From NCBI GenBank assembly GCA_025964325.1, contig JAOPZA010000082.1, forward strand, positions 1-42,967: a DNA stretch of 42,967 bases. Direction: 5' to 3'. The position numbers were made by a program, and so were the translations under genes. Of the stretch, positions 6,223-10,782 are shown piece after piece; the stretch's first letter is position 1, and the number at the start of each line of letters is the position of its first letter. The notes beneath the pieces were generated by a model. That model was not told the DNA's origin, did not search any database, and saw nothing but the letters and a program-made list of their open reading frames with translations. This DNA is from Conexibacter sp. (lineage in GTDB: Bacteria; Actinomycetota; Thermoleophilia; Solirubrobacterales; Solirubrobacteraceae).

Positions 6223-7482
6223 CTAGGCCGCGAACAGGCCCGAGCCGACCCAGTCGGCGGCGCCGCGCGAGCCGCGCGGGACGAAGAAGTAGCCGCCGCC
6301 GACGGGCGTGACGTAGTCGGCCATCGGCTCGTCCGCAAGCCGCTCCTGGACCGTTGCGAACTGCCGCCGCGGGTCCTGGTTGAACGCGACGAACGCGAGC
6401 CCCTGGTCGAGCTGGCCGGCGGCGTCGAAGCCGCGGTGGTAGTTCCATCCGCGGCGCAGGATGCGCTGCGACTCGGTGCTCGCGGAGCGCGGCCGTGCGA
6501 GTCGGATGTGCGCGTCGAGCGGGATCCGCGCGCCCTTCGGATCGGCCTCGTAGTCCGGCGCCTGGAGCTCGTCGCTGCCGCCGAGCGGCGCGCCGGCGTC
6601 GCGCGAGCGGCCGATCATGCTCTCCTGCTCACGCAGCCCGACGCGGTCCCAGAACTCGACGTGCATGCGGATCGCGCGCACCACCTGGTAGGTGCCGCCC
6701 GCGGTCCAGCCCGGCTCCTCGGCGCCGGGCTGGACCCACACGAGCTGGTCGAGCAGCGCGGCGTCGGAGACGTCGGGGTTGGCGGTGCCGTCGCGGAAGC
6801 CGAAGAGGTTGCGGCGCGAGCTGTGCGGCGTCGGTCCGCGGTCCGCGCTCTGGAAGCCGTCGAGCGTCCAGCGCAGCGCGAACTGGTCGCGCACCGGACG
6901 CATCAGCTCGCGCAGCGTGTGGATGACGGTGTCGCGTCGCTGCGCGGCGATCTGGAGCAGCAGGTCGCCGTGGCTGCGGGCCGGGTCGAGGTCGTCGTTC
7001 GGGAACGCCGGCATCGTCGTGAGGCGGGCCGGCTGCCGCCGCGCGAGCCCGTAGCGGTCGTCGAACAGCGAGGCGCCGAAGGCGATCGTGACCGTGAGGC
7101 CGTCCGGCGCGATCGTCGTGCCGAGCGTGCCGGAGTCGGCCGGCGGCTCGTCGACCTCCTGCTCGGGCATCGTCGTCCCCTGCGCGAGCTGGCGGGCGCG
7201 GGAGCTGAGCGCCTGCAGCCCCTGGACGAGGTTGCTGCGGTCGCCGGCGATCGCGTCGAGCGCGACGAGCGTCATCTGGTCCTGCGGCGGCGAGGCGACG
7301 CCCGCCTGGTGCGCGCCGTCGAACGGGACGCGCGCGGTCAGCGCCGCGGTCGCGCCCGAGGACGCCGGCGCGGTCGTCGGGGATGAACCGGCGAGCGCCT
7401 GCTGCGCGGTCGCGCCGGCGAGGCCGCCGGCTCCGAGCGTGGCGGCGGAGCGCAGCAGGAACGCGCGCCGGTCGACGCTCAT
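6223..7482 (-). CDS. efeB: Dyp-type heme peroxidase EfeB (exported by Tat)
   Basis: 419 residues. The N-terminus SVDRRAFLLRSAATLGAGGL has the twin Arg of a Tat signal, so the protein should be exported folded with heme. The Dyp motif GFRDGTANP is present, with downstream EFWDRVGLREQESMIGR and ILRRGWNYHRGFD typical of EfeB. EfeB oxidises ferrous iron or takes iron from heme for the elemental ferrous uptake system. Its ATG overlaps the efeO stop by 4 nt (ATGA), so the two are one operon, efeO-efeB. The permease gene efeU is not in this window. Confidence 0.94.
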   Translation of the reverse strand: MSVDRRAFLLRSAATLGAGGLAGATAQQALAGSSPTTAPASSGATAALTARVPFDGAHQAGVASPPQDQMTLVALDAIAGDRSNLVQGLQALSSRARQLAQGTTMPEQEVDEPPADSGTLGTTIAPDGLTVTIAFGASLFDDRYGLARRQPARLTTMPAFPNDDLDPARSHGDLLLQIAAQRRDTVIHTLRELMRPVRDQFALRWTLDGFQSADRGPTPHSSRRNLFGFRDGTANPDVSDAALLDQLVWVQPGAEEPGWTAGGTYQVVRAIRMHVEFWDRVGLREQESMIGRSRDAGAPLGGSDELQAPDYEADPKGARIPLDAHIRLARPRSASTESQRILRRGWNYHRGFDAAGQLDQGLAFVAFNQDPRRQFATVQERLADEPMADYVTPVGGGYFFVPRGSRGAADWVGSGLFAA

Positions 7483-8525
7483 CTCGTCGCCGCTCTCTTC
7501 GGCGCGGCCAGCGCGGGCAGCGCGGGGATCGCGCGCGGCAGCTGCGTCTCGAGCGCGCCGGGGACGGCCGCGAGCGACTCGAGGACCGCGCCGAGGCGGC
7601 CGTCGACGCGCTCGTGCTGCGCGCGCGTGAGCGCGCCGGTCGCGGGCCAGCGGCCGCCGTGGTCGCGACGCACGCTGGCGAGCTCGGCGTCGAGGCGCCG
7701 CAGTCCGTACTGCACGGGCGGGAGCGCGTCGCCGCGACCCTGGAGCAGCGGCACGAGCGTGCCGACCACGGCCGCGGTGGCGGCGCTCGCGTCGGCCGTC
7801 GCCCGCACGCCGGCGCCGCTCCAGGGCGCCGCGCGGCCGCTCACCAGGTCGCGCTGGGCGTCCTCGAGGATCTCGTGCGCCCGCGTCGCGTAGTCGAGCG
7901 GCGTGATCGGGATCGTGCGCACGACGCGCCGCAGCGTGTGGACGTCGCGCGCGAGCTTGACCGCCCAGGGCACGAGCGAGGCGAGCGGCGCCCCCGTCCA
8001 GAGGCCGTGCTCGAGCCGGTGCAGGCCCGCGAAGCGACGGTCGGCGACCCCGCGCCGCAGGCCTCCCGGCATCCCGTCGATCGCCCGGTCGAGGGGACCG
8101 AGCGCGCGGTAGGCGGCACCGAGCAGGAGGTAGCGGTCGCACGCCCGTCCCCACGCGGCCTGCGCGGCGCCGCGATCGCCGCGGCGCAGCGCGGTCGCGA
8201 GCTGCCCGACGGGCGCCTGCATCGCGTCGGCCTCGCGTGCGGCGTAGGCGCGATAGCGCGCGACCGGCGCGCGAAACGCGCGCGGGGAGAGCGGACTGAT
8301 CTCCGTGCGCAGTCCGGCGGCCGTCGGTCTCATCGCCGCGGCGTCGGCGACCGCCTGCGGCGAGGAGGCGGAGCCCGCGACCGTCGTCACGACGTGAGGC
8401 GGCGCGGCCGCGGACGGAGCGATGCCGGCGCTCGTTCGCGCGGGCGCGCCACCGCCGCAGCCGGCGAGCGCGAGCAGCGCGGCGCCGGCCGCGAGCGCAG
8501 GGAGGAGTCGGGGAAGTCGGAGCAC
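7479..8525 (-). CDS. efeO: EfeO/EfeM-type iron-uptake lipoprotein (imelysin, M75 domain)
   Basis: 348 residues from a GTG (complement of 8523-8525). That start gives a clean lipoprotein signal, VLRLPRLLPALAAGAALLAL followed by AGC. An upstream GTG at 8624 would add 33 residues before the signal and is less likely. The M75 domain covers about residues 90-330 and has the HxxE iron-site motif in GLHRLEHGLW. E. coli EfeO has an N-terminal cupredoxin-like domain, which I do not see here, so this is the shorter M75-only (EfeM-like) form. It should bind ferrous or ferric iron on the outer face of the membrane. It is divergent from the phosphoesterase gene. Confidence 0.9.
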   Translation of the reverse strand: MLRLPRLLPALAAGAALLALAGCGGGAPARTSAGIAPSAAAPPHVVTTVAGSASSPQAVADAAAMRPTAAGLRTEISPLSPRAFRAPVARYRAYAAREADAMQAPVGQLATALRRGDRGAAQAAWGRACDRYLLLGAAYRALGPLDRAIDGMPGGLRRGVADRRFAGLHRLEHGLWTGAPLASLVPWAVKLARDVHTLRRVVRTIPITPLDYATRAHEILEDAQRDLVSGRAAPWSGAGVRATADASAATAAVVGTLVPLLQGRGDALPPVQYGLRRLDAELASVRRDHGGRWPATGALTRAQHERVDGRLGAVLESLAAVPGALETQLPRAIPALPALAAPKRAATR

Positions 8526-8625
8526 GGTGGCGGAGGGCGACCCGGCGCGAGCGGAGGCGAAGGGCGCCGGCAAGGTGACTTTGCAACGGCGCGCGAGAGC
8601 TCGTGTTACCGACTCGTGATTCACG

Positions 8626-8640
8626 TCACCGTCACGGTGA
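8626..8640. promoter_or_regulatory. 15-bp perfect palindrome between efeO and the phosphoesterase
   Basis: TCACCGT-C-ACGGTGA is a perfect inverted repeat with a one-base centre. It sits at the start of the 244-bp region between 8525 and 8770, next to the Pho-box-like repeats. It does not match the DtxR/IdeR or Fur consensus. It could be an operator for efeOB or the phosphoesterase; function is unknown. Confidence 0.3.
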
Positions 8641-8645
8641 GCGTT

Positions 8646-8689
8646 AACTCATCCAGCTCTCATCGGAAGCTCATCCGACCGTCACACCG
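8646..8689 (+). promoter_or_regulatory. Pho-box-like array of 11-bp direct repeats
   Basis: CTCATC occurs at 8648, 8659 and 8670, exactly 11 bp apart. As 11-mers the units are AACTCATCCAG, CTCTCATCGGA and AGCTCATCCGA. A fourth, weaker unit, CCGTCACACCG, follows in phase. Eleven-bp direct repeats with a TCA core are the hallmark of PhoB/PhoP boxes (CTGTCAT in enterics, GTTCACC in Streptomyces). They read toward the secreted phosphoesterase, a typical phosphate-starvation target. Binding by PhoP is inferred, not shown. Confidence 0.6.
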
Positions 8690-8799
8690 CTGCGACATCC
8701 GTCCGCGATCGCGGCCTCAGGATCACGTTCGCGCCGACCGGCGGGCGGCCGGAGGCGCCTCAGGCCCCGATGATCCGTCCAGGAAAGGAACGAGGCATC

Positions 8800-10782
8800 T
8801 TGCGCAGGATCAAGACCCTCGCATGTGGAGGACTGGTCGCGAGCATCGCGGCGGCCGGACTCGCCGTCGCTCATGCCGACACGTCGTCGTCGACGACGCC
8901 GGCCTCGACGCCGATCAAGCACGTCGTCGTGATCTTCGGCGAGAACGTGTCGTTCGACCACTACTTCGGCACCTACCCGAACGCGACCAACCCGGCGGGC
9001 GAGCCGAGGTTCCAGGCGGAGGCCGGCACGCCCGCCGTCAACGGCCTCAGCGACGCGCTGCTGAACAGCAACCCGAACGCGCTGAACCCGCAGCGGCTCG
9101 ATCGTTCGCGTGCCGTGACGTGCTCGCAGAACCATGGCTACGGCGCCGAGCAGTCGGCCTACGACCACGGCCTGATGGACAGATTCGTCGAGAGAACGGC
9201 TGGCGGGGGCGCGCTCTGCCCGACCCCGATCGTGATGGACTACTACGACGGCAACACGCTCACCGGGCTGTGGAACCTCGCGCAGAGCTTCTCGATGAGC
9301 GACAACTCCTACAGCACCAACTTCGGGCCCTCGACGGTCGGCGCGCTGAACCTGATCAGCGGCCAGACGCATGGCGCGAGCGCCGGTGGCAACAGCGCCG
9401 GCACCGTGATCGGCGATCCCGACCCGTCGACGGCGCTCGACGACTGCGCCACCGGCGGCACGGTGATGTCGGGCAAGAACGTCGGCGACCTGCTGAGCGC
9501 CCACCACGTCACCTGGGGCTGGTTCCAGGGCGGCTTTCGGCCCTCGAGCGTCGATTCGACGACGGGCAGAGCGACCTGCAGCTCCTCGCACGTGAACGTC
9601 GCCGGCGCCACCGTGCGCGACTACTCGCCGCACCACGAGCCGTTCCAGTACTACGCCTCGACCGCGAACATCCACCACACCGCGCCGGCCTCCGCCGCGC
9701 TGATCGGCAAGGACGATCCAGCCGGCACGGCCGTGGGGCAGAAGGTCAACCACCAATACGACCTGACGGACTTCGACACGGCGCTGGCGAGCGGCAACCT
9801 GCCGGGCGTCTCGTTCCTGAAGGCGGCGGCGTTCGAGGACGCGCACCCGAGCAACTCCGACCCGCTCGACGAGCAGCGCTTCGTCGCGCGGACGCTCAAC
9901 GCGCTCCAGCAGTCGCCCGACTGGAGCAGCACCGCCGTGATCATCGCCTACGACGACTCCGACGGCTGGTACGACCACCAGATGTCGCCGATCGTCAACC
10001 ACTCCCAGACGCCCGACGACACCCTCACCGGGACGGACTGCGGCGCTCCGACGGACACGACCGGCACCGCCTACCAGGGTCGTTGCGGATACGGGCCGCG
10101 CCAGCCGCTGCTGGTGGTCTCGCCGTTCGCGAAGCAGAACTTCGTCGACCACTCGGTCACCGACCAGACGTCGGTCCTGAAGTTCATCGAGGACAACTGG
10201 CAGCTCGGCCGCATCGGCGACCAGTCGTTCGACGCGCGCGCCGGCTCGCTCGGCAACATGTTCAACTTCGACGCCGACGCGAAGCTGGCGCCGAAGGTCT
10301 TCCTCGACCCGACCACGGGTGAGGTGACGAAGACGACGCCGGCGACCGACGAGGGCGGCACGACGCCGACGACGACCACGCCGAGCGGCGGCGATCCCGG
10401 CGACGGCAGCCACACCGGCGACGGCGGTCAGTCCGGCGGGGGCAAGCCCGGGCACGGCGGCGGCAAGCCGACGACGGGCCAGGGCCACGGACCGAAGCGG
10501 CCGGACATCACGGTCACGTGCGCGACGACCCGCCACGGCAGCCGTCTGACGGTCGCGTGCAGGGTGACCGGCAAAGACGCGAAGACGGGCGCGACGGCAC
10601 TGCGCTTCCGCGTCGAGCGCGGCAACGAGGTCGTCGCGACGACCCGCTCGGTCGTCAGGAAGGGACACGCCGCGGCGGTCCTGAAGACGAAGAGCGCGCT
10701 GCACGGGAAGTTCACGCTGCGGATCGCGATCGCGCATTCCGGCAGCGCGAGCGCCTCGACGGCCCGCGCGCTGCGCCTGTAG
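8800..10782 (+). CDS. Secreted phosphoesterase (phospholipase C / acid phosphatase family)
   Basis: 660 residues from a TTG preceded by AGGAAAGGAACGAGG (8781-8795). An ATG ten codons upstream (8770) has no good ribosome site. A Sec signal (ALACGGLVASIAAAGLAVAHA-like region, to about residue 27) is followed by the phosphoesterase domain. It opens with HVVVIFGENVSFDHYFGTYP and includes NFGPSTVGALNLISGQ and YDDSDGWYDHQM, the latter supplying metal-binding Asp and His. Residues about 510-570 are a Thr/Gly/Pro-rich linker. A C-terminal beta-rich domain of about 90 residues follows (ITVTCATTRHGSRLTVACRV). The enzyme should release phosphate from phospholipids or phosphomonoesters outside the cell. 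A Pho-box-like array lies upstream and a strong hairpin follows the stop. Confidence 0.9.
   Translation: MRRIKTLACGGLVASIAAAGLAVAHADTSSSTTPASTPIKHVVVIFGENVSFDHYFGTYPNATNPAGEPRFQAEAGTPAVNGLSDALLNSNPNALNPQRLDRSRAVTCSQNHGYGAEQSAYDHGLMDRFVERTAGGGALCPTPIVMDYYDGNTLTGLWNLAQSFSMSDNSYSTNFGPSTVGALNLISGQTHGASAGGNSAGTVIGDPDPSTALDDCATGGTVMSGKNVGDLLSAHHVTWGWFQGGFRPSSVDSTTGRATCSSSHVNVAGATVRDYSPHHEPFQYYASTANIHHTAPASAALIGKDDPAGTAVGQKVNHQYDLTDFDTALASGNLPGVSFLKAAAFEDAHPSNSDPLDEQRFVARTLNALQQSPDWSSTAVIIAYDDSDGWYDHQMSPIVNHSQTPDDTLTGTDCGAPTDTTGTAYQGRCGYGPRQPLLVVSPFAKQNFVDHSVTDQTSVLKFIEDNWQLGRIGDQSFDARAGSLGNMFNFDADAKLAPKVFLDPTTGEVTKTTPATDEGGTTPTTTTPSGGDPGDGSHTGDGGQSGGGKPGHGGGKPTTGQGHGPKRPDITVTCATTRHGSRLTVACRVTGKDAKTGATALRFRVERGNEVVATTRSVVRKGHAAAVLKTKSALHGKFTLRIAIAHSGSASASTARALRL

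What the first reader, a model, noticed from the sequence alone, without database searches (positions are those of the whole stretch)
8646..8689. Pho-box-like 11-bp repeat array in front of a secreted phosphoesterase
CTCATC recurs at exactly 11-bp steps (8648, 8659, 8670) with a weaker fourth unit in phase. That period and the TCA core are the signature of PhoB/PhoP sites, and the downstream gene is a classic phosphate-starvation enzyme. The core CTCATC differs from the known GTTCACC and CTGTCAT versions, so it may define a lineage-specific box.
Basis: partly seen in the sequence, partly recalled or inferred. Interest (0 to 1): 0.6.

Follow-up and report, generated by a model that had tools for sequence, protein, structure and literature searches.

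The report
Phosphate-starvation switch before a phosphoesterase
The repeated 11-base DNA motif in front of this secreted phosphate-releasing enzyme is very probably a phosphate-starvation switch (a Pho box), because the same kind of array sits before phosphate-uptake and phosphatase genes throughout this soil-bacterium family; it is a known kind of control element in a lineage where we found no earlier description of it.

Summary
The array is real: CTCATC at 8648, 8659 and 8670, plus an in-phase GTCACA at 8681. Four in-phase TCAY units at 11-bp steps occurred in 0 of 20,000 dinucleotide shuffles of the intergenic region. It lies before a PF04185 phosphoesterase, probably starting at TTG 8801. 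A matrix trained only on 12 arrays from other loci gives this region the top 2-, 3- and 4-unit scores in the 43-kb window. Exact TCAY triplets at 11 bp occur at two places in the genome: here and before the pst-phoU operon. Across the family, TCAC triplets (119, against 4 for the backward control) often precede pst, phoU, phoX, GDPD or PhoU_div-Pit genes. A 70%-identical ortholog with a different upstream neighbour keeps five units. The Pho-box reading is therefore well supported. The 'lineage-specific CTCATC box' is not: the lineage's unit is [GTC]TCAC, close to Streptomyces GTTCACC, and CTCATC is a local variant. Phosphate response, binding and the regulator were not shown; a RegX3-type regulator is the best candidate. 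Novelty: new member of a known kind. Two side finds may be more interesting: a Pho-like site facing the divergent efeOB iron genes, and a receiver-less winged-helix gene between the box and pstS or phoU in other genera.

The parts
8646..8689 (+). Four-unit 11-bp direct-repeat array (CTCATC x3 + GTCACA), the proposed Pho box of the phosphoesterase
   Evidence: read directly; shuffles; top 4-unit score in the window with a matrix trained on other loci; five units in the G001 ortholog
8618..8639 (+). Second two-unit site GATTCACGTCACCGTCACGGTG, in phase with itself, not with the main array
   Evidence: best 2-unit score of the window on either strand (15.9); function inferred
8601..8622 (-). Two-unit site GAATCACGAGTCGGTAACACGA facing efeO
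   Evidence: score 13.2; similar site 78 bp before the efeO ortholog in G001
8692..8699 (+). GCGACATC, possible -10 region of the phosphoesterase promoter
   Evidence: same distance from the last repeat unit in three orthologs; promoter role inferred
8801..10782 (+). Secreted phosphoesterase gene (PF04185), probable TTG start at 8801 rather than ATG 8770
   Evidence: Pfam 253 bits; ribosome-binding-like AGGAACGAGG; TTG conserved in G001 and G003 homologs
7479..8525 (-). efeO-like gene, divergent neighbour (with efeB downstream at about 6223-7500)
   Evidence: PF09375 and NCBIfam EfeO below cut-off; efeB TIGR01412 above cut-off

Best explanation
The array is a Pho box (PHO operator). When phosphate is scarce, a phosphorylated PhoB/PhoP/RegX3-type response regulator binds head-to-tail, one subunit per 11-bp unit, and recruits RNA polymerase to a promoter whose -10 lies at about 8692-8699 and whose -35 is replaced by the last units. 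The phosphoesterase is then made and secreted to release phosphate from organic phosphate. Shown here: the array, its conservation before an ortholog, its link to phosphate genes across genus and family, and the constant distance to GCGACATC in orthologs. Inferred: the response to phosphate, the binding, activation rather than repression, and the regulator (most likely the RegX3 ortholog with an adjacent kinase-like gene on contig C54, next the response regulator inside the pst-phoU operon).
For: Own genome: the only two exact TCAY triplets are here and before the pst-phoU operon; with one mismatch a third lies between phoU and a secreted-protein gene. Genus: 31 hits against 1 for the backward pattern and 5 at period 10; 15 of 27 places precede phosphate genes or this PF04185 gene. 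Family: 119 against 4, and about 19 of 26 sampled loci at phosphate genes. A matrix trained without the window or its orthologs gives the top 2-, 3- and 4-unit scores of the window to this intergenic region. The ortholog in G001 has a different upstream gene but keeps five units. A Solirubrobacterales homolog has three units. Literature: PHO boxes are 11-nt direct repeat units, GTTCACC in S. coelicolor (PMC4415409).
Against: No expression or binding data. Three of four units carry TCAT, off the lineage consensus TCAC, and the array scores well below canonical arrays (11 against 25-33 for three units). The G003 ortholog keeps only two degenerate units. About 12 of 27 genus hits are not at recognised phosphate genes. 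The regulator is not identified.
Confidence: 0.88

Rival explanations
1. The array is bound by another OmpR-family regulator, such as the ortholog of M. tuberculosis PhoP on contig C189, that answers a signal other than phosphate; phosphate genes are part of its regulon.
For: C189 encodes a close ortholog of M. tuberculosis PhoP (273 bits), whose site is TCACAGC repeats with 4-bp spacers (PMC4832192), and relatives of this gene lie about 10 kb from pst genes in several genus members.
Against: The array-linked genes are dominated by phosphate uptake and phosphatases; a RegX3 ortholog is also present.
Confidence: 0.15
2. The sites in this intergenic region serve the divergent efeOB iron operon rather than the phosphoesterase.
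For: A minus-strand two-unit site faces efeO at 75 bp, and the G001 efeO ortholog at another place has a similar site at 78 bp.
Against: The four-unit array points to the phosphoesterase and is kept before its G001 ortholog, which has a different neighbour. The efeO site is a separate element, so both can be true.
Confidence: 0.05
3. The repeat is a chance low-information pattern without function.
For: Units are off-consensus, and the G003 ortholog is degenerate.
Against: Shuffles, genome rarity, independent matrix and ortholog conservation.
Confidence: 0.03

Closest known systems
PHO box of Streptomyces coelicolor PhoP (11-nt direct repeat units, GTTCACC core)
   Same: 11-bp direct repeats with a TCAC core; two to five units per promoter; upstream of pst, phosphatase and GDPD genes (PMC4415409, PMC7866108)
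   Different: In this window three of four units read CTCATC; the lineage's other arrays read [GTC]TCAC without a fixed last C
E. coli PhoB pho box (CTGTCAT repeats)
   Same: 11-bp period, TCAT core as in three window units, role before phosphate genes (PMC4415409)
   Different: Different flanking bases; the lineage consensus is TCAC
Mycobacterium tuberculosis PhoP site (TCACAGC repeats with 4-bp spacer)
   Same: TCAC core, strict 11-bp step, tandem binding (PMC4832192)
   Different: The linked genes here are phosphate uptake and phosphatase genes; the third to seventh bases are not conserved as TCACAGC here
Bacillus PhoP box (TT[ACT]ACA repeats, from memory)
   Same: 11-bp direct repeats; a Bacillota homolog of this phosphoesterase carries TTAACA-like units at 11 bp (L200)
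   Different: Core sequence; the Bacillus consensus was recalled, not tested

Membership tests
Pho box (PhoB/PhoP/RegX3 operator) | At least two direct repeat units at an 11-bp step | tested here: met
   four units at 8646-8689
Pho box (PhoB/PhoP/RegX3 operator) | Unit core shared with the species' other phosphate promoters | tested here: met
   TCAY core shared with C184 pst-phoU and genus arrays; matrix from other loci ranks the region first; three units deviate at the fourth core base (T for C)
Pho box (PhoB/PhoP/RegX3 operator) | Location in the promoter of a phosphate-acquisition gene | tested here: met
   upstream of a PF04185 phosphoesterase and kept before its ortholog
Pho box (PhoB/PhoP/RegX3 operator) | Same motif enriched before pst and other pho genes genome-wide | tested here: met
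Pho box (PhoB/PhoP/RegX3 operator) | A PhoB/PhoP/RegX3-type response regulator encoded in the genome | tested here: met
   RegX3 ortholog on C54; also C184 and C189 regulators; which one binds is unknown
Pho box (PhoB/PhoP/RegX3 operator) | Regulator binding and phosphate-dependent transcription | not testable with these tools
   needs footprint and expression data
Phosphocholine-specific phospholipase C (TIGR03396) | Score above the curated cut-off of 580 bits | tested here: not met
   165 bits; PF04185 superfamily membership is clear (253 bits)

The most novel reading that the evidence does not exclude
In this family the Pho regulon is read, at least in part, by an unusual regulator: the divergent-receiver response regulator inside the pst-phoU operon, or the receiver-less winged-helix protein encoded between the array and pstS or phoU in other genera. 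The same boxes would also couple phosphate starvation to the efeOB iron genes.
Probability: 0.25. Interest if true: 0.55.

Novelty: new member of a known kind. Interest (0 to 1): 0.35.

Why it matters
It gives a usable Pho-box model ([GTC]TCAC at 11 bp) for an actinobacterial family of soil bacteria in which the searched library shows none. A phosphate regulon can then be predicted genome by genome, and a large family of secreted phosphoesterases is tied to phosphate starvation. It also corrects the CTCATC-box idea and points at possible phosphate-iron coupling.

Tried and rejected
CTCATC as a distinct lineage box: rejected, the exact TCATC triplet is unique to the window. Period 12 as a spacing control: its 59 hits exceed period 11, but many are the same word repeated in several genomes and look like coding-frame effects (12 is a multiple of 3); I did not test each, and used period 10 (5 hits) and backward patterns as controls instead. 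Control of the array by efeO alone: disfavoured by the ortholog at another place. One-mismatch hits at C20, C113, C161, C204 and C244 did not look like phosphate promoters. Paper PMC2275107 on the Streptomyces repeat structure is not held. Literature searches for the lineage gave nothing on a Pho box.

Full report
What was checked. The window is the whole of contig C217 of a 4.34-Mb draft genome. CTCATC occurs at 8648, 8659 and 8670, and GTCACA follows in phase at 8681. In 20,000 dinucleotide shuffles of the 244-bp intergenic region, three or more in-phase TCAY units at 11 bp occurred in 0.015% and four or more never; any 6-mer three times at equal spacing occurred in 0.27%. Exact TCAY-N7-TCAY-N7-TCAY occurs at two places in the genome, both with phosphate genes: here, and C184:8853.

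Genes. Downstream is a PF04185 phosphoesterase (253 bits). It is related to phospholipase C and acid phosphatase but below both NCBIfam cut-offs, so its substrate is open. The start is probably TTG 8801: it follows AGGAACGAGG, and TTG at this place is kept in homologs of G001 and G003, while the G001 ortholog has no ATG at the place of 8770. Upstream and divergent are an efeO-like gene and efeB of iron uptake.

The array follows the phosphoesterase. The G001 ortholog (70% identity) has another gene upstream, yet carries five in-phase units, TCAT-TCAC-TCAC-TCAC-TCAC. The G003:C22 ortholog is divergent from efeO as here and keeps two degenerate units, TCAT and TAAC. In all three, GCGACATC follows the last unit at the same distance. 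That fits a -10 region placed as in PhoB-type promoters (general knowledge, not tested). A Solirubrobacterales homolog has TTCACGCGATG-GTCACAAGTTG-GTAAC; a Bacillota homolog has TTAACAGAAGT-TTAACGGCGTA-TTAACAAAACC-TTTACG, the Bacillus form as I recall it. Among 79 relatives from many phyla, 7 have two TCAY units at 11 bp within 400 bp upstream, against 0 for the reversed control; most show none, so the link outside the family is only partial.

The same box precedes phosphate genes. In the own genome C184 carries array, TIM-barrel gene, pstS, a permease gene read as pstC, phoU and a response regulator, with further sites before pstS. C18 carries an array between phoU and a secreted protein of no Pfam family. 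In seven genomes of the genus the TCAY triplet gives 31 hits, against 1 for the backward pattern and 5 at period 10. Period 12 gives 59; many are the same word repeated across genomes and look like coding-frame effects, which I did not test one by one. Of the 27 distinct places, I count 15 before pst/phoU operons, pstS, pstC, alkaline phosphatase PF00245, an ExeM/NucH-type nuclease, a metallophosphoesterase, PhoU_div-Pit, or the PF04185 gene. In 61 genomes of the family TCAC triplets number 119, against 4 for the control, in 50 genomes (summed by me). About 19 of 26 sampled loci are at phosphate genes, including GDPD, PhoX and PstS. The family includes Patulibacter: the contig of G025 has the length of the named record NZ_KI912613.1. 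That the genus is Conexibacter is my inference from the size of genome G002 (6,359,369 bases), recalled, not tested.

Independent scoring. A unit matrix was trained on 12 arrays, with the window and its orthologs left out. It gives the best 2-unit score of the window to 8618-8639 (15.9), the best 3-unit score to 8657-8689 (11.3) and the best 4-unit score to 8646-8689 (9.8), both strands scanned. Scores this high occur at about 1 in 10,000 positions in loci chosen to be rich in true arrays. Canonical arrays score about 25-33 for three units, so the window array is an off-consensus member.

The lineage unit is [GTC]TCAC, close to the Streptomyces GTTCACC (PMC4415409). The exact TCATC triplet is unique to this promoter. 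This is a variant array of a TCAC-type box, not evidence for a new box.

Regulator. Three candidates in the own genome: C54, a RegX3 ortholog (227 bits) with an adjacent long reading frame that looks like a kinase but was not scanned; C184, inside the pst-phoU operon, with a weakly scoring receiver domain; C189, an ortholog of M. tuberculosis PhoP (273 bits), whose site is TCACAGC with 4-bp spacers (PMC4832192). My estimates are 0.5, 0.25 and 0.15. SenX3-RegX3 is the phosphate system of M. smegmatis (PMC4415409).

Side finds. A minus-strand site at 8601-8622 faces efeO 75 bp before its start. The efeO ortholog in G001, at another place, has TCACCACTCCGTAACACC about 78 bp before its start (distances computed by me). 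This suggests that efeOB belongs to the same regulon. In other genera a protein of about 110-140 aa that is only a winged-helix domain (PF00486) lies between the array and pstS or phoU.

Verdict. A well-supported Pho box of known kind, in a lineage where the searched library shows no description. Phosphate response and binding remain to be shown.

Noticed in passing
window 8601-8622 (-); L281 1386-1407 (+): Pho-like two-unit site 75-78 bp before efeO here and before its ortholog at an unrelated place in G001; possible phosphate control of the efeOB iron genes.
   Followed up: partly
L289 1573-1941, L295 1564-1890, L310 1574-1990, L150 2175-2531, also L292, L296, L304: A receiver-less OmpR-type winged-helix protein (about 110-140 aa, PF00486 only) lies between the TCAC array and pstS or phoU in many genera of the family, often divergent from PhoU_div-Pit.
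   Followed up: partly
L123 7879-8808 (-), L134 6151-7113, L139 6106-7050, L142 5538-6449: A xylose-isomerase-like TIM-barrel gene (PF01261) is the first gene of the array-driven pst/phoU operon; its role in phosphate metabolism is unexplained.
   Followed up: no
window 8801: The phosphoesterase probably starts at TTG 8801 rather than ATG 8770.
   Followed up: partly
L127 4769-4846 (-): The pstC promoter in G001 carries two separate arrays of several units each.
   Followed up: no
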